Source of the DNA: Aptenodytes patagonicus
Lineage: Eukaryota; Chordata; Aves; Sphenisciformes; Spheniscidae
Reading direction: 5' to 3'
DNA: 64,000 bases
Assembly: GCF_965638725.1 (NCBI RefSeq)
Contig: NC_134961.1
Span: 2,790,001-2,854,000 of the forward strand
Below are positions 38,570 through 63,982 of this stretch, piece after piece (positions within the stretch are counted from its first letter, which is position 1; each line of letters opens with the position of its first letter). The position numbers were made by a program, and so were the translations under genes. The notes beneath the pieces are model-generated. The model saw nothing but the letters and a program-made list of their open reading frames with translations. It did no database searches and had not been told where the DNA came from.

Positions 38570-39345
38570 CCAGCACCGCCCCTCAGCACCACCCCTCACA
38601 GCCCCCCAGCGCCCCTCACAGCCCCCCCATCGCCCCTCACAGCCCCTCACAGCCCCCCAGCGCCCCTCACAGCCCCTCAGCGCCCCTCACAGCCCCCCAG
38701 CGCCCCTCACAGCCCCTCACCACCACCCCTCACAGCCCCCCATCACCCCTCACAGCCCCTGTCACCCCTCACAGCCCCCCAGCGCCCCTCACAGCCCCCC
38801 CATCGCCCCTCACAGCCCCTCACAGCCCCCCAGCGCCCCTCACAGCCCCTCACAGCCCCCCAGCGCCCCTCACAGCCCCTCACCACCACCCCTCACAGCC
38901 CCCCATCACCCCTCACAGCCCCCCCATCGCCCCTCACAGCCCCTGTCACCCCTCACAGCCCCCCGCGCCCCTCACAGCCCCCCAGCGCCCCTCACAGCCC
39001 CCCATCACAGCCCCCCCATCGCCCCTCACAGCCCCCCATCACCCCTCACAGCCCCCCCATCGCCCCTCACAGCCCCCATCGCCCCTCACAGCCCCCCAGC
39101 GCCCCTCACAGCCCCTCACCACCACCCCTCACAGCCCCCCATCACCCCTCACAGCCCCTCACAGCCCCCATTGCCCCTCACAGCCCCTCACAGCCCCCCA
39201 TCACAGCCCCCCATCGCCCCTCACAGTCCCCCCATCGCCCCTTACAGCCACTCACAGCCCCCCATCACCCCTCACCGCCACCCCTCACAGCCCCCCATCG
39301 CCCCTCAGAGCCCGTCAGCTCCCCCCACAGCCCCCCCGCTCGACG
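38570..39345. repeat. C-rich minisatellite, about 34 units
   Basis: This is a tandem array built on CCCCTCACAGCCCCCC followed by a variable AGCG, ATCG or ATCA. The core CCCTCACAG occurs about 34 times by eye. Units are about 20-23 bp, with shorter (11 bp) and longer forms mixed in. There is higher-order structure: a composite stretch beginning CGCCCCTCACAGCCCCTCACC recurs at about 38701, 38864 and 39100. The plus strand is strongly C-rich, so the minus strand carries runs of 4-7 G. It ends directly in the CpG island of the TBC1D24 promoter. The long Ser/Pro-rich open frames across it are repeat artefacts. Confidence 0.95.
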
Positions 39346-53127: not shown

Positions 53128-54086
53128 ATGGATGAATACAACCGCTTTGTGGATTGGGACAAAATGGATGTTACTGTCCAGAGCCAGGATGCGAAGGAGC
53201 TAACCTGCACGGAGTTCCAGGAGCTCAAGCAGCTGGCCCGGCAAGGCTACTGGGCCAAGAACCACTCTCTGAGAGCCAAAGTGTACCACAGACTAATTAG
53301 CAATATCCCGTGCCGCACAGTGACCCCAGATGCAAATGTGTACCGGGACATTATTGTGAAGATTGTTGGAAAACGTAACAGTAGCTCCCTTCCATTACCA
53401 GAGTTTGTGGATAACAGCCTGGTCCCCACATACTGCTTGAATGCAGAAGGCATCGGGGCAGTCAGGAAGATTATATTGTGCATTGCGAATCAGTTCCCAG
53501 ACATATCATTTTGCCCAGCACTGCCTTCTGTGATAGCTTTGCTCCTCCACTACAGCAGAGATGAGGCAGAGTGCTTTGAACAGGTTTGTCGCATCCTTGC
53601 TTGCAATGACCCATCTAAGCGGCTCATTGATCAGACGTTCTTAGCTTTTGAGTCCTCCTGCATGACCTTTGGTGACCTGGTTAACAAGTACTGTCAGGCG
53701 GCACATAAGCTGATGGTGGCAGTGTCCGAGGATGTGTTGGAGGTATACTCTGACTGGCAACGGTGGCTCTTTGGAGAACTGCCTATGGTGTACATTGCTC
53801 GGGTCTTTGATGTGTTTCTGGTGGAGGGCTACAAAGTTCTCTATCGCGTTGCGCTGGCTCTTCTGAAATTTTTTCACAAAGTCAGAGCTGGGCAGCCCAT
53901 GGAGTCTGACAGCATACAGCAGGACATTCGAGCTTTTGTGAGAGACATTGCCAAGTCGGTGTCTCCAGAGAGGCTTTTGGAAAAAGCCTTTGCTATCCGC
54001 CTCTTCTCGCGGAAGGAGATCCAGCTTCTGCAGATGGCCAATGAGAAGGCTTTGCAGCAGAAGGGCATCACGGTCAAACAGAAAAG
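53128..54086 (+). CDS. TBC1D24: TBC1D24 first coding exon: complete TBC domain
   Basis: This exon encodes residues 1-319 plus two bases of codon 320. The ATG has a good Kozak context (GCCATGG) and follows an in-frame stop. The protein is very close to vertebrate TBC1D24: for example [51 protein letters not shown] and [11 protein letters not shown] are shared. The TBC domain spans about residues 45-260. The basic residues K34, R38, K236 and R240 correspond to human K36, R40, K238 and R242, which form the phosphoinositide-binding pocket of TBC1D24 and fly Skywalker. As in that family, the usual TBC catalytic IxxDxxR and YxQ motifs are not evident. The family acts with ARF6 and Rab GTPases in synaptic-vesicle, endosomal and neurite membrane traffic. 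The exon ends AAAAG/GTAGGG and is intact. Confidence 0.97.
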
Positions 54087-56366
54087 GTAGGGCTCTCACT
54101 ACAGGTAGCCTGAGTGATCTCGTGAGTTTTCCCAGCGTGATGAGCAGTCAGTCAGCCCTGAGTGGCTACTGGTGGGGAAGAAGAGCTCTGCTGGTACATG
54201 CTGGTATCTCTGCTGATTTTTTTTCTCTGCAGAAAAAGTCAGCAGCCCCAAAATTAAGTATTGCTGGGATTGTAACAAGAAGCATAACTGAATGTTATGA
54301 TACAAGAGAAACAAAGCAGTTTCTCATAGCTTACTCAGTGATGAATTTATAATTACTTTTTACAGGTACATATTAATTGCAAGTATTGTATCTCAACAAT
54401 GTCTTTCACAAGCTGTTTTTGAACTAAAAGGCATTTTAGCAAAGCTGGAAAAAACACTGATAAATTACTTGGAAGAAAGTACCCAAACAAATGTAAAAAT
54501 TAATTCTTAAATATGAGATTATTTGTATAAAATGTCAATTTCATGCTGCCCAGTACTGTGAATTCAGCAGTTTCTTTAGTGTAAGTAGGCAAACACTGTC
54601 CCAGCTGGGAACCTTTTGCTTAACTCGGGAGTTATTTTAACAGAGCAAGGAAGAAATAAGTCTTAATTACAGGTTACTTATAAAATTAGTTTGACTACAA
54701 GCCTCCTGAAAGTCAAGAGTATAGTAATCATAGGTAGGAGTTGACCTATTTTGTGCCAGGTCCATGTACTATTAGAAATAATGATTTTAAAAGAACTATG
54801 GAAGAGAAGAGTGAGGATACTGATCCAAATGATGATTGCGTAATCACAGTTTCTTTTCAGAAATGAGGGGAGGAAAAGCCAGCTGTAAAACTAGTAAGTG
54901 AAATCCTGCTCCAATGTGATAGCAAAAGCCACAATAATAAAAAGCTTAGCTGAAAGACCCCTCCATGTATATAGGAAAGACAAAATTAGCATCTTGCCAA
55001 GTGCAAATGTATGTGCAGGTAAATACTGGTGGTGTAGACATGTTCTGTTTCTCCTAAGGCCTTCTGTGACTGCAGAAAACTTCTGCCAACCACTTTTGAA
55101 ATCTAAGTTTAAGTGTTGAACAGTTTTGTCAGCTGTCCTGACCTCTGAAGGGAGGATGACTTCTAGAAGTCTACTGGGGTCAGTAAGTGTGATATCTAGA
55201 ACTTGGTATTCTAGAGGGACAGTCTTACATTTTCTCAAAATATTTAAAAAATCAAAAGGTACCAGCCACCAATGTATTGGGATCTTGCAGCCAATTGTGT
55301 TGCTGAGTTAGTCACAGTAGTTGCAAACAGATATCATTCCATGGTATTGAAAAATATACTTAAGCAGATTTCAGCCTATAAAATAAAGTAAATGTTAGCT
55401 GAACATCATTCATGTGCCCAAATGCATGTAAAGTTCCCTTCAGTCTTTTCCAACCGTTTATTTTTAGACTCACTTAGAAAATTTGGTTTACAACTAGCTT
55501 GTGCTTTATCTTGCTCATATCTTGGAAGAGACCGCTCTGTCAGTCTCAGATATTTCAAGGCCTTCAGCCACTGGAATGTCACGTTGGGTAGAGTTCAGAC
55601 CATCGTATCTGGAACTCGCAACCAGAAGTATTAGCTCTTCCAGTGTGTAGCTTTTCTTCCTGTACTGAAGTTCAGAAGAGTTGTAATATCCTTTCTGAGT
55701 ATATTCTTCAGCAACAGAATGAGAGCTTAAAAAAAAAAAATAAAAAAACCAACCGCAAAAAACCCAGAAGCTCCTGCTGTGTTAAATGTTGTAGAGGTGT
55801 TCTTGCTCAGAACAACAGTGATGCCTGCAAAGCAAAATACAGTAAATTCGTACCCAAACAATGCCAGTAGTTATTGCCTTACTGGGCAGAGTTACTAGTG
55901 AAAAACTTTTATCCTCTCTCGGCTACTTTTCTAAACCTGCTGAAACTTCTCAGTGTCCCCTGGCACCACGGTACTGCTGTGAACTTGGCTCAGTGTAGGC
56001 AGATGTGGGTGCTGGAGAAGTGAGCTTTTCTCCAGTGCCCGACAGGATGTGAGTGAGTTCTTTTGTCCAGATGTGTATGGCCTGTGCAAGGAGATGATGA
56101 ATTTTTTTCCAATCGGATAACTACAAGCAGGTAGCAAAAAAGGGGAAAAAAAACAGAAATAGGAAATATTTTAACCTGTCTGTTTGTTTGTTTTTTCTCA
56201 TGCTTGGTGATTTGAATCAAACCTTACTTTGTTTCTCTCCAGGCTCCTTTCATTCACTTTGTCGTGGATGTAGGAAATCACTGATCTTTTCTATCTTTTT
56301 TTGTCTTTCTCCTTATACATTTTCCTTCTGTCAATTCCATACCCACTGCACCCCTCCTGTTTGCAG
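54087..56366 (+). other. TBC1D24: TBC1D24 intron before the microexon
   Basis: This is a 2.3 kb AT-rich intron with donor GTAGGG. Its 3' end carries a long pyrimidine-rich stretch (56280-56366) ending CTCCTGTTTGCAG, which includes a TGC within the acceptor. It also has an A-rich stretch at 55730-55765. No gene is seen in it. Confidence 0.85.
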
Positions 56367-56384
56367 TGTTGCACCTCCCAAAAG
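56367..56384 (+). CDS. TBC1D24: TBC1D24 18-nt microexon
   Basis: The 18 bases TGTTGCACCTCCCAAAAG lie between TTTGCAG and GTAGGT. The phase is exactly that required by the flanking exons: it completes codon 320 as Ser, adds V-A-P-P-K, and leaves AG for an Arg codon. Skipping it joins the flanking exons in frame with a single Arg. Human TBC1D24 has an 18-nt exon at the same position coding for S-V-S-L-S-K and used mainly in neurons. Here the first two residues and the last are the same and the middle three differ. The position between the TBC and TLDc domains means it would tune the linker. Transcript evidence is needed for certainty, but length, phase, sites and position agree. Confidence 0.82.
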
Positions 56385-57512
56385 GTAGGTTAAAACACTT
56401 GAATCTTTGCACTTTGCTTGTTTCTTCTGTCTATGGCCGGTTATTTTTTCAGAGGCTGTCATTATTGCTAATGCTGGGGCAGGAGAAGCAGGGCAGCAAT
56501 TAGAGCATCCGATTGCTGCGTAACATCTCCTGAATACACTCTTGCAAAGTTAGTTCAAAGCACCTGCAAAGTTGTAAGGTAAGGGATCATGGGCCCAGCT
56601 AGTCAACATAGCGCTTCCATACAGCGATACAAGCCTGTGTTTTCCAGAATGGAAAAGTGTAATGTTAATGGTGGGACAGAAGTCCTTTCTACACTGGAAG
56701 AAAAAGTGTTGTTTTTTAAAAACATCTCAAGTAACGTGTCTTCAGAACTGTTAGGTACTGTCCCACATCCAAACCTGATATATGCTGTTGCAATACATGT
56801 GAGACATACTCAACTTTTTTTTCTTCTTTGCAAGCTTTCCGCAGTTAATTGGAAAGATGTTGGACTGAATCCAACTTGGCACACTCTTAAAAGTGACTTG
56901 TCTCTATTCATACTAGATTAAATTTATTTTTAAGTAGATAGGGGGTTTTTAGAGGCAAGAAGACAGACTATTTTCCTGTGTCAAGGAGGTCAGAGTTACT
57001 CAGCCATATAGCATTAATGGTTAATGAAGTCATTCATCAAGTCTTTGCCTGAAAAGCAAATCTTAAAGAACAAAACCCAGTGGATTGTGATACCTGATAA
57101 GCAGAGAACTTGGAAAGGAGAAAGATTGCCCTGCGAGTATTAAGTACCACAGATGTATGGGTTTAAATTAATGCCTTTGAGGATCTTCTGGCCTTGTTGC
57201 AGGTGCCCTGAGTTAACTTTAGTGAGTGATGCAGACTAACATTTGTACTAATTTATAAAACCAAAATTGGAATTAATTTCCTCATGTTTTCATGTTTGAA
57301 AGAATACCTCAAGAGACTTGTCAAAGCATGTTTCATATCATATCCTGTGTGTTGAGGATTTTACCTCTAATAAATCAGCAGGCTGTTAATTCCAGCCAAG
57401 CAAATCTTCAAAGTCCGTGTATTATTTTACTGTAGTTACAATGTTCTGAAAGCAGCAGAAAGCCTTGATTTCTGCTAGGAAGCACATAATATTGGGTTTG
57501 TAGGGACTTAGG

Positions 57513-57611
57513 TAGATGCGGGGTGTCTGTTGACACTGATCTCAACACAGGATTAGGCTTCAGGCTTATATACCACATATGGCTTATCTTGCCATTTATG
57601 ACTGAGAAACA
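57513..57611 (+). repeat. Unidentified repeat, copy 1
   Basis: This is about 95 bp sharing GACACTG-x2-CTCAACACAGGAT-x-AGG, CAG-x-CTTA and ATTTATGACTG-x-GAAA with the segment at 58097-58190 in the same order. It is either an old local duplication or two copies of an interspersed repeat I do not recognise. Confidence 0.6.
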
Positions 57612-58096
57612 ACATACCACTTCTACCACGCATTTATGCCCTAACTGAAATTATAAGGGATTTTAAAGATAATGCAGACCCTGTAAGATTTGACCCAAAG
57701 CAAAGTAGAGCAGGCAGATGTAATTCAGTGAGTCATACCTTGGAGTGTGGTATTTGTTGTCTTGGAATACATACAGAGCATATATGCTGTGACAGCTGCT
57801 ACCACGTCATCAACGTTGGCTTTATCTTCAGGAACTTTGAGGTCTCTGAAGCACATTGTATTAATGATATAGCTGTAAAAACAACAGTCCTATGAAAATA
57901 GCAAATAAGCTGCCTTATTAAACATTTAAATTGTGCTAAGTTGTCATGCTGATCCCAATAAGCCAACATGAAGAATTGAGGAATACAGGTTAGATACTTG
58001 TAATTCTAGCTGCAATTTTCTGAGCCACACGCCCCACCCCCCCAAAAAAAAAAAAACACTTGTATTTTTGTTAAGCAGCACAGAGTTTGGTTTAAT

Positions 58097-58190
58097 ATAG
58101 GTGCAGGCTGTGTATCGACACTGGCCTCAACACAGGATCAGGTCTCAGTCTTAAGCACCTGCAGCTGTGATTTATGACTGGGAAAGAGCA
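58097..58190 (+). repeat. Unidentified repeat, copy 2
   Basis: This is the same repeat as at 57513-57611, in direct orientation and diverged in the middle, where one copy has TATATACCACATATGGC and the other AAGCACCTGCAGCTG. Confidence 0.6.
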
Positions 58191-58914
58191 GGTCATTTTA
58201 TTTGAAATCCTTCAGTCAAGCTACGGTCTAGGTTTTACTAAAACTGAATGGTGACATTAAATATACAATGATTCGCCATGATATTCAAGGGGCAGGAACG
58301 GCATGCCTGGAATAGTTTTAAATGGCCAACACAATGGTAAATGCTTTCTAGTAAATCAGAAAGATCTGTTTGTAAAGATGATATTCTACCTACATGGAAA
58401 AGTTGTAGGAAGACACAGGGTACTGAAAGTGATGTGTTACTATGAATACTGCTGAACATGGGCTTCGAGTGGGGTCTGGGTAGGAAAGTCCTTAAATCAG
58501 CAGTTCATAGTAGCCAGGAGAAGGAACAGGGGCAAAAGAAAAGGTACACTGAGGTTGAGAGCCTTTTAGGAACAAGTACTTTAGTTGCCCAAACAGATCA
58601 CATAAGTGTGAAAAATGTACAGACCAAGCATATAAATAATTATGAGGCTTGCTTGTTTTGAGGTTTAGTAAGTTTAAAACTGTTTTGATGTTTGCTACAA
58701 AATCTTAGGCTATTTATCATCATTACTTTTCCTCCAGAAATTCACTGTAATAAACTAGTTGACTGCCCTGAATATTTTTTAGTTCCTTGAATGGGAGAAA
58801 AATCTAGTTTCTGATGAACTGAAACCAGGGCTTTGTTTCTCAGCTCTGTTCCATAGTGCCACCAGTCTTTAGCTGCAGACTGGACAGGACCCGGAGGGCT
58901 GAGACCTAAAGTAA

Positions 58915-59015
58915 GATTCTGAAGAAGTGGGTTCAAGTCTTGGCTCATACTTCGCTTCAGCTGATCTCTCCTGGGCCTCAGCTTGCTGTGTTTAAAAGCA
59001 CAAATAATGTCCTAA
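58915..59015 (+). mobile_element. MIR-like SINE remnant
   Basis: GTGGGTTCAAGTCTTGGCTC, then TGATCTCTCCTGGGCCTCAGCTT and CACAAATAATG, follow the order of the MIR core and 3' region. It is an old, diverged copy. Confidence 0.5.
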
Positions 59016-59707
59016 TCAGTGATACTGTAAGTTTTAAAACCCATTAATAGTTGCAGCTTCCTTAAATAGGTGTCCGTATAAGTTCCTTGCTAATTAAATA
59101 GTGATTTGGTTCGTTTTGCTAGAGGAAGCAGTAATTTTATTATTATTTTTTTAAGTGACCTAAGGAGTCACTTCATTAGAAATGCTGACATTAAGGCAGC
59201 TACAGTTAATTTCAGGAAACATTTCCCAATGTCTCCAAGCAAGCACCACTCTAAAGTACAGTGCAAATGCTGCTGATTTCTTAGTACTACAAGCAAGAAA
59301 AATAATAAAAAACTTATAGCTTGTGTGTTTCAGGGAGTGAGCTAAGCTATTCGGATACATGCAGATATGCAGTATTGAGGTCCTCTTTATGTTCCATGAA
59401 ACTAAGAGGAAAGAAATGTGTAATTGTAAAAAAACAACAAAAAAAACCCAAAACAAAACATCAGAAATTGGCAAATACTTGAAGCTGAACCCTTGCATGC
59501 AGAGCAAACTGCCTAAAGCTTCATTTAACTAACGGCTACCCAGTAATTTAGTATCTTGTAAGTTCCCATGTCACTTCCACCATGTACTTGTCTGTCACCC
59601 TTGCATTTTAAGTCTTTAACATTGGCCACGGATGCAATAACACTTGTTTAATCCCCAGGCTCTGAGTTTGTGTGCTTATTTAGTCTGAGAAATGAAGGCT
59701 GGTTAAG

Positions 59708-59738
59708 ATGATGATGATTATTATTATTATTATTATTA
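59708..59738. repeat. (ATG)n(ATT)n microsatellite
   Basis: Four GAT units are followed by about six ATT units. Confidence 0.9.
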
Positions 59739-60505
59739 CCTTCAAGTGTTTAAAAGCCATGAATCAATTCTTATAATTGTATCAGACCCCTCTGGAGGGT
59801 ATGGGGGTTTGCTTTCCGGTGTGAGTGTCTAGCATTCCTTCATGTTTTCAGGCTCCGTCTGTAACCATGAACCTAGGAACTTCTTTGGTTCTTAATGAAG
59901 TGGAAGTCATTGGTAATAACATGTTTCCAGGAGGTGGAACTTTCCAAAAGCTTCAAATATTTGCCTTGGATTAAAATTGCTTAGCCTGGTAATACTGATT
60001 CCTCTAAGATTTCTGAGGGGTTTAGGAATTCTCTAATTCCATGGTACAGGCAGGACCTCAGAGGGGGGAAAAAGTACTACCTCTTCCTTTCAGATCCTGG
60101 CTGTTTCTTTAGGTATTCTGTTCTCTATGCTTAAATACTAGTGCCAGTGAGACTGTCTCAAACAGCAAATATAATTTGATCTATTTAAGGTCATGGTCAT
60201 CTTAGCTGGCTCACCGTTATGTCCTATATATATAAAGGTGCAGGCCACAGCTGCCATACAGAGGAATTGCTCCAGGTATTTCAGTAAGTCCAGATCACTA
60301 CCTCTTGAGGATTATGTTAAACTGCAGTAGTTTATTATCTTCACTAAGTCATGGCCTTCTAATCCCATGGCTGGAGCTCTGAACAATAGCATATCTACTA
60401 GGGTCTTTTAGTGTTCAGCTGTCTTTGCATGTTACTGTCCAGTAATCTGAAACTTGTTTTGTTGTTAAATTATTGTTTCTCAATGTTTTGTATTGTATTT
60501 CTCAG

Positions 60506-60664
60506 GCAGAATGTGCACTTAGCGGTTCATGCTGAGAACTTCAAGTCTGAAATTGTCAGTGTGAAAGAGATGCGAGATATCTGGTCATGGATTCCAGAGC
60601 GATTTGCACTTTGCCAGCCCCTCTTGCTTTTCACCACCTTGGAACATGGCTGTAGTCTGAGCAG
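60506..60664 (+). CDS. TBC1D24: TBC1D24 coding exon, start of TLDc domain
   Basis: The first base completes the Arg codon (326 with the microexon) and 52 full codons follow, plus AG of codon 379. The translation, [16 protein letters not shown] then [20 protein letters not shown], matches vertebrate TBC1D24 almost residue for residue and begins the TLDc domain (TBC, LysM, domain catalytic). In this family that domain is tied to V-ATPase binding and protection from oxidative stress. Acceptor CTCAG/G and donor AG/GTAAGG are both strong. The exon is intact. Confidence 0.96.
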
Positions 60665-61632: not shown

Positions 61633-61696
61633 GTTCTATTCTCACAGCGAGGGACACGAACCAACTCTTCTCCTCATCAAGACCACAGCAAAAGAG
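61633..61696 (+). CDS. TBC1D24: TBC1D24 coding exon (TLDc)
   Basis: This is a 64-nt exon: one base completes Arg 379 and 21 codons follow (380-400), reading FYSHSEGHEPTLLLIKTTAKE minus its last residues in the human protein only at a few positions. GHEPTLLLIKTT is a conserved TLDc strand. The acceptor is CTTCAG and the donor AAAGAG/GTGAGT. The exon ends in phase 0. Confidence 0.95.
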
Positions 61697-61825: not shown

Positions 61826-62190
61826 ACAGTTTATATATTTATATATTTTGTTTATAACAAAATGAAGAAGCAAGGGACCTGAAATTGCCTGGGGGTTTGG
61901 TTGGGGTTTTTTAAGCAATGCATGCTTTAAGTGGTTCCATTTGTTGATTATGGGACTATGCATTCTTGGGTAGATCTTGTAAACTATGTCTTGGTCAGCT
62001 ATTCTTTCTCTTGTAAGTAACGTGGGATGATGTACTGGAGTAACTCATTGAGCTCTCGGACAAATGCTCTTAATTGCAGAATCAGAGGGAGAGGCTGGGG
62101 AATTGTTAAGAAACTCATGATTCATAGAAAGTATTTTCACTTTCTCCAGGATATGAGGAGAGAAAGTAGCAGAATTTAAATGGTATGAAT

Positions 62191-62504
62191 AATATTGGAC
62201 TACATAGTGTGGAAAAAAAAGCTTTAGCTTCATCTCATTCTTGTTTGAAAAAAAAATAAAACAAGAAAGCTCTGAGAACCTGAGGAGGAGTGCACACAGG
62301 TGCCTTATCTAATGGGTGTTGGTTCTCTGCTCTGCTGTGTATGACAATATTGGACAACATAATGTGAAAACAGAAACACCAGCTTCATCTCATGCTTGCT
62401 TAAAAAAAAAAGCATAAAACAAGAAAGCTTCCCAGAACCTCCGAAGGAGGGCACACAGGCGGTTCCTGTAATGAGCGTTGGTTGTCTGCGCCACTGTGCA
62501 TGAC
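62191..62504. repeat. Tandem duplication, two units of about 157 bp
   Basis: Unit A is 62191-62345 and unit B 62346-62504. Both begin AATATTGGAC-x-ACATA-x-TGTG. Both contain AGCTTCATCTCAT, an A-run, ATAAAACAAGAAAGCT, AGAACCT, GCACACAGG and GTTGGTT, and both end TGCATGAC or TGTATGAC. They are directly adjacent, with mostly substitutions and small indels. Confidence 0.9.
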
Positions 62505-63886: not shown

Positions 63887-63982
63887 GTCTGTGGTGCTTA
63901 TCTGTCAACTGACTGGAGCGAGCGCAGGCGAGGAGGGAACAAGCTGAGTTTCTTTGGAACTGGGGAGTGCTTTGTATTTAGG
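63887..63982 (+). CDS. TBC1D24: TBC1D24 coding exon (TLDc), last in window
   Basis: Thirty-two codons (401-432) with [13 protein letters not shown], then [17 protein letters not shown], are the central TLDc signature (GAYLSxDWxER and FFGTGExFVF). Compared with human, one position after SER is RR instead of NK-type and the rest is conserved. Acceptor TTCTAG, donor TTTAGG/GTGAGT. The gene continues beyond the window: about 125 C-terminal residues of TLDc expected from the mammalian protein, the stop codon and the 3' UTR are missing. This is an edge effect, not a truncation of the gene. Confidence 0.95.

What the first reader, a model, noticed from the sequence alone, without database searches (positions are those of the whole stretch)
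56367..56384. An 18-nt TBC1D24 microexon with a changed middle
The microexon keeps the length, phase and flanking sites of the human neuronal microexon but codes for S-V-A-P-P-K where human has S-V-S-L-S-K. Two prolines would stiffen the TBC-TLDc linker and remove two serines that could be phosphorylated. ORF-based annotation would miss it entirely.
Basis: partly seen in the sequence, partly recalled or inferred. Interest (0 to 1): 0.72.

Follow-up and report, generated by a model that had tools for sequence, protein, structure and literature searches.

The report
Bird TBC1D24 neuronal microexon, partly diverged
This is very probably the bird version of a tiny, already known brain exon of the epilepsy gene TBC1D24, with up to three of its six amino acids different from the human ones; it is an ordinary orthologue whose changed middle still needs other species and RNA data to interpret.

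Summary
TBC1D24 exon 2 ends at 54086, an 18-nt exon lies at 56367-56384, and the next exon starts at 60506. Inclusion reads KQK-SVAPPK-RQN; skipping reads KQK-RQN. It scores best of 23 open 18-nt candidates in the intron; 4 of 300 shuffled introns hold one as good, and 0 of 1054 candidates in 400 kb of strand-bases elsewhere in the genome is. Its acceptor has a 91-nt AG-free zone, a pyrimidine tract and UGC motifs, the layout published for SRRM4-type microexons; one eMIC-domain match was found in the genome. Papers describe human exon 3 (residues 322-327), skipped in non-neural tissue. So it is the orthologue of a known microexon. A second TBC+TLDc gene lacks it. Peptide similarity alone is at chance level (167 of 300 shuffles). 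Stiffening and lost phosphorylation are untested. No RNA or other-bird data could be reached.

The parts
53128..54086 (+). TBC1D24 coding part of exon 2 (start codon to donor; 319 codons plus AG), RabGAP-TBC domain
   Evidence: Open frame; Pfam PF00566 E 4.9e-25; donor AAAAG|GTAGGG
54087..56366 (+). intron upstream of the microexon
   Evidence: GT...AG boundaries
56274..56364 (+). 91-nt AG-free zone with pyrimidine-rich tract before the microexon acceptor; branch-point-like CTGAT (A at 56284) and CTTAT (A at 56315)
   Evidence: (of 471 AGs examined in the intron only this one has a zone this long, and only this one this pyrimidine content)
56347..56349 (+). UGC motif, starting 20 nt before the exon
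56362..56364 (+). UGC motif directly before the acceptor AG
56367..56384 (+). 18-nt microexon, inserts S-V-A-P-P-K
56385..60505 (+). intron downstream of the microexon; donor AAAAG|GTAGGT
60506..60664 (+). next coding exon (R)[12 protein letters not shown]..., start of the TLDc half
61633..61696 (+). coding exon FYSHSEGHEPTLLLIKTTAKE
   Evidence: TLDc PF07534 on the spliced C-terminal half E 2.2e-33
63887..63982 (+). coding exon [13 protein letters not shown]... (last two coding exons lie beyond the window, C13:2854422-2854656 and 2856174-2856327)

Best explanation
It is the bird orthologue of TBC1D24 exon 3, a neural in-frame microexon. Shown here: an intact TBC-TLDc gene whose TBC exon and first TLDc exon can be joined in frame either directly (KQK-RQN) or through 18 nt (KQK-SVAPPK-RQN), with splice signals arranged as published for SRRM4 (eMIC)-dependent microexons, and an eMIC-encoding exon elsewhere in the genome. 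Inferred: outside neurons PTBP1 on the long pyrimidine tract keeps the exon out; in neurons SRRM4 acts through the UGC motif before the acceptor and brings it in, adding six residues to the linker between the TBC and TLDc domains. Inferred too: the linker tolerates the substitutions, so S-V-A-P-P-K in place of S-V-S-L-S-K is probably drift with retained length, phase and Lys/Arg end, rather than a new function.
For: Exact junctions and phase, best of 23 18-nt candidates; 4/300, 0/300 and 0/300 shuffles; 0 of 1054 candidates elsewhere and 0 of 28110 AGs with all three acceptor features; 561/555-aa spliced protein with TLDc; eMIC domain PF15230 E 3.1e-14 at C15; mouse next-exon start 16 of 18 bases the same as here (section read); human/mouse exon 3 facts from passages of PMC7689082, PMC3895324 and PMC7598720; cis-code and PTBP1 repression from passages of PMC8797185, PMC5247714, PMC12626420 and PMC4317164.
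Against: No transcript evidence at all. The acceptor is only 15th of 481 AGs by the simple matrix. A 27-nt candidate at 56243-56269 has a slightly higher summed score (10.6) through a stronger acceptor, though with a poor donor (-0.1). No RBFOX motif GCATG lies within 900 nt downstream. Peptide similarity to human alone is at chance level. In a published set of 95 microexons conserved between mouse and zebrafish the peptides are highly conserved (PMC12626420 passages; a set chosen for being conserved), so a half-changed one is somewhat unexpected. No positive-control microexon could be run.
Confidence: 0.9

Rival explanations
1. The true neural exon in this intron is a different short exon, for instance the 27-nt stretch 56243-56269 (strong acceptor TTTCTCTCCAG), and the 18-nt match is fortuitous or a decaying relic.
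For: Its summed score is slightly higher (10.6 against 9.9) and its acceptor is much stronger (10.7 against 4.0).
Against: Its donor is poor (-0.1, GAT|GTAGGA); the length does not fit human exon 3 (six residues, PMC7689082); the 18-nt candidate alone, of the 471 AGs examined, has the 91-nt AG-free zone, ending in UGC-AG.
Confidence: 0.05
2. The substitutions are adaptive (compatible with the exon being the orthologue): a lineage change that removes regulation by phosphorylation at two serines and adds a Pro-Pro element (rigidity or a binding motif) in the neuronal TBC-TLDc linker.
For: Ser at human/mouse position 324 is Ala here; microexon peptides conserved from mouse to zebrafish are highly conserved (PMC12626420).
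Against: No other bird or reptile could be compared; the first serine with its basic neighbours is kept; the residue after RQ also differs (Asn here, Phe in mouse by the oligo, Ser in the paralogue), which suggests a tolerant linker; phosphorylation of these serines was not looked up beyond one paper.
Confidence: 0.1
3. The microexon is present but has lost neural regulation in this lineage (constitutive or never included).
For: No transcript data; the first exon base is T and the acceptor is moderate.
Against: Preserved splice sites, open phase, UGC and AG-free zone; an eMIC-encoding exon is present.
Confidence: 0.08

Closest known systems
Human/mouse TBC1D24 exon 3 (residues 322-327; present in the 559-residue human form, absent from the 553-residue form)
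   Same: Same gene, same intron, same split codon (human donor c.965+1, exon in codon 322), six in-frame residues
   Different: Ala where human/mouse have Ser324 (supported); Pro-Pro where human has Leu-Ser (recalled peptide); tissue pattern in this species unknown
SRRM4 (eMIC)-dependent neuronal microexons
   Same: 18 nt, in frame, UGC directly before the acceptor, long pyrimidine tract and long AG-free zone (layout from passages of PMC8797185, PMC5247714)
   Different: SRRM4 dependence untested; only one UCUC in the tract; no nearby downstream RBFOX motif
Second TBC+TLDc gene of the same genome (C16:about 11.789-11.798 Mb, minus strand)
   Same: Homologous exon boundary between ...VQS(R) and (R)QSFHLAVD; TBC and TLDc matches
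   Different: Its intron is 294 bp; the only 18-nt AG/GT pair in it carries a stop, so there is no open 18-nt candidate (candidates of other lengths exist)

Membership tests
TBC1D24 exon 3 (neural microexon) | Lies in a gene coding for a TBC domain followed by a TLDc domain | tested here: met
   PF00566 E 4.9e-25 and PF07534 E 2.2e-33 on the two halves; spliced 561 aa
TBC1D24 exon 3 (neural microexon) | Six in-frame residues inserted at the codon split by the exon 2 donor | tested here: met
   AG|T...AAAAG|G, 18 nt; human residues 322-327 and c.965+1 from PMC7689082 and PMC7598720
TBC1D24 exon 3 (neural microexon) | Peptide like the mammalian one | tested here: inconclusive
   3 of 6 residues against the recalled human SVSLSK; 167 of 300 shuffles also give 3 or more
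TBC1D24 exon 3 (neural microexon) | Skipped in non-neural tissue | not testable with these tools
   No RNA data for this species
SRRM4 (eMIC)-dependent microexon | UGC close to the acceptor | tested here: met
   UGC at -5 and -20; UGC at -5 in 811 of 28110 AGs elsewhere
SRRM4 (eMIC)-dependent microexon | Long AG exclusion zone and long pyrimidine tract | tested here: met
   91 nt, 78% pyrimidine over 88 nt; unique among 471 AGs of the intron; 45 of 28110 AGs elsewhere have a zone this long, 0 have zone, UGC at -5 and tract together. UCUC enrichment not seen: one UCUC
SRRM4 (eMIC)-dependent microexon | The genome encodes the eMIC domain | tested here: met
   One PF15230 match among 15 candidates scored, C15:13339706-13339852, E 3.1e-14; a frame there reads RKRPIPYYRPSPSSSS...
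SRRM4 (eMIC)-dependent microexon | Inclusion depends on SRRM3/4 in neurons | not testable with these tools
   Needs RNA-seq or a minigene

The most novel reading that the evidence does not exclude
A lineage-specific recoding of a neuronal microexon: its splicing control is kept while the six-residue peptide it adds to the TBC1D24 linker has lost two phosphorylatable serines and gained a Pro-Pro element, so that the neuronal form of an epilepsy protein is regulated differently in (some) birds than in mammals.
Probability: 0.1. Interest if true: 0.45.

Novelty: new member of a known kind. Interest (0 to 1): 0.22.

Why it matters
The mammalian microexon matters medically: a frameshift inside it (Ser324Thrfs*3) was found in five people of one family with myoclonic epilepsy, progressive cerebral atrophy and early death (passages of PMC3895324); homozygous mice have severe seizures, and mice carrying it with a second truncating allele die at about P20 (passages of PMC7598720). 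A natural variant of the peptide would be a ready-made test of which of its six residues matter, but by itself the finding is an ordinary orthologue.

Tried and rejected
Chance hit: rejected on splice score plus acceptor layout, not on peptide similarity, which is at chance level. Duplicate-gene origin of the microexon: the C16 paralogue has no open 18-nt candidate. A solved vertebrate TBC1D24 structure that would show the linker: none among the 6 matches to the TBC exon and the 10 matches to the C-terminal half at E up to 0.001; best were fly Skywalker 5hjn and 6r82. Papers: 'TBC1D24'+'microexon' gave 0; TBC1D24+SRRM4 gave 3, off the subject by their listing; TBC1D24+chicken gave 41, 20 listed, and a wide search on birds gave 54,709, 8 listed: nothing on this exon by title and abstract start. 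The recalled human peptide: 431 papers held at least one of the terms, 10 listed, none of those 10 with the peptide; papers with more terms rank first, so none holds both TBC1D24 and the peptide. None of the ten paper searches asked for the letters SVAPPK, so whether this peptide is in print is open. Passages of PMC8608904, PMC6360273, PMC8062039 and PMC7015432 gave nothing on the microexon's function. Tona 2019 (mouse Ser324Thrfs*3) is not held; Guven and Tolun 2013 was seen only as cited. A positive control (KDM1A neural microexon in the same genome) was attempted but the genome search did not complete.

Full report
What is there. TBC1D24 runs on the + strand. Its long coding exon starts at ATG 53128 and ends at 54086 inside a codon (AG|); it holds the RabGAP-TBC domain. 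The next clear coding exon starts at 60506 (G|CAG...). Between them, at 56367-56384, is TGTTGCACCTCCCAAAAG, preceded by ...CTCCTGTTTGCAG and followed by GTAGGT. Inclusion reads [28 protein letters not shown], skipping reads [22 protein letters not shown]. With the remaining exons, two of them beyond the window, the spliced protein is 561 or 555 aa and has a TLDc domain.

More than chance? With approximate, recalled splice matrices, the 18-nt exon is the best of 23 open 18-nt candidates in the intron and second of 333 open in-frame candidates of 3-51 nt. Of 300 dinucleotide shuffles of the intron, 4 contain an 18-nt candidate scoring as high; 0 contain one that also shares three residues with the recalled human peptide; 0 contain one with as long an AG-free zone. 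In the other loci then held (230,999 strand-bases, some overlapping; the three loci covering this gene, L002, L016 and L018, were left out and this intron was blanked on the + strand only) no candidate reached the score, while 15 shared three or more residues. In 20 of 20 further 10-kb stretches of the genome, 0 of 1054 open 18-nt candidates reached the score. The peptide match alone, S-V-x-x-x-K, is not significant: 167 of 300 shuffles reach three identities. The evidence is thus the combination of place, phase, length and splice signals.

Splicing layout. The acceptor is preceded by 91 nt without AG (56274-56364), 78% pyrimidine over 88 nt, with UGC at 56362-56364 directly before the AG and a second at 56347-56349. 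Of 471 AGs examined in the intron this is the only one with so long a zone and the only one with so high a pyrimidine content, whereas a UGC within 25 nt is common (151 of 471). Elsewhere in the genome 45 of 28110 AGs have such a zone, 811 have UGC at that place, and 0 have zone, UGC and tract together. Passages of PMC8797185 name long AG exclusion zones, UGC near the acceptor and long UCUC-containing pyrimidine tracts as the code of eMIC-dependent exons, also seen in mammalian targets, and say that many neural microexons are repressed by PTBP1; passages of PMC5247714 show SRRM4 acting through a UGC just upstream of an exon. One eMIC-type domain (PF15230, E 3.1e-14) was found in the genome, on C15; that it belongs to SRRM4 rather than SRRM3 is inference. 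Against: only one UCUC in the tract, no GCATG within 900 nt downstream, and the acceptor ranks 15th of 481 by the matrix. No known microexon could be run as a positive control (and its repeats did not complete).

Known counterpart. [quoted passage not shown] Passages of PMC3895324 say that exon 3 is spliced out in isoform 2, predominantly non-neural, and place Ser324Thrfs*3 in exon 3. Passages of PMC7598720 speak of 'micro exon 3', give the donor as c.965+1 (its G conserved from human to lamprey), and report severe seizures in homozygous Ser324Thrfs*3 mice; its methods section prints a mouse oligo whose next exon starts GCAGTTTGTGCACTTAGC, 16 of 18 bases as here.

The changed middle. Against that, this genome has Ala at the Ser324 position (supported) and Pro-Pro where Leu-Ser is recalled. 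The first Ser, after K-Q-K, is kept, as are Val and the terminal Lys before Arg. A nearby linker residue varies too: the one after RQ is Asn here, Phe in mouse (from the oligo) and Ser in the second TBC+TLDc gene of this genome. That gene, on C16, keeps the same exon boundary but has a 294-bp intron with no open 18-nt candidate, so of the two genes only TBC1D24 shows the microexon. PMC12626420 reports that the peptides of 95 microexons conserved between mouse and zebrafish are highly conserved (passages), which makes the divergence mildly unusual. Whether it is this species', birds' or older could not be tested: I had no other vertebrate genome. Stiffening and loss of phosphorylation are plausible but untested.

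Rival within the intron. A 27-nt stretch, 56243-56269, has a stronger acceptor and a slightly higher summed score, but a poor donor and the wrong length. I hold the 18-nt exon at 0.9 as the true orthologue of exon 3.

Verdict. Real, correctly located, and an ordinary orthologue of a known neural microexon with a partly changed peptide. Interest 0.22.

Noticed in passing
G000:C16:11789001-11798500 minus strand (L017): A second gene with a TBC exon and TLDc exons, laid out like TBC1D24 but without an open 18-nt microexon; probably a TBC1D24-like paralogue (its presence in mammals was not checked).
   Followed up: partly
window 56230-56270: A strong acceptor (TTTCTCTCCAG) 124 nt upstream of the microexon acceptor, with a weak in-frame donor 27 nt on; could be a decoy acceptor or a second short exon.
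   Followed up: partly
window 38587-39336: A 750-bp C-rich tandem array (units of 10, 20 and 30 bp) that stays open in all three + frames for hundreds of codons; ORF callers would report false proline-rich proteins.
   Followed up: no
window 62183-62504: A tandem pair of 159-bp units, 77% alike, in a TBC1D24 intron.
   Followed up: no
window 60426-60431: TGCATG (RBFOX-type motif, recalled) about 75 nt upstream of the exon after the microexon; no GCATG just downstream of the microexon.
   Followed up: no
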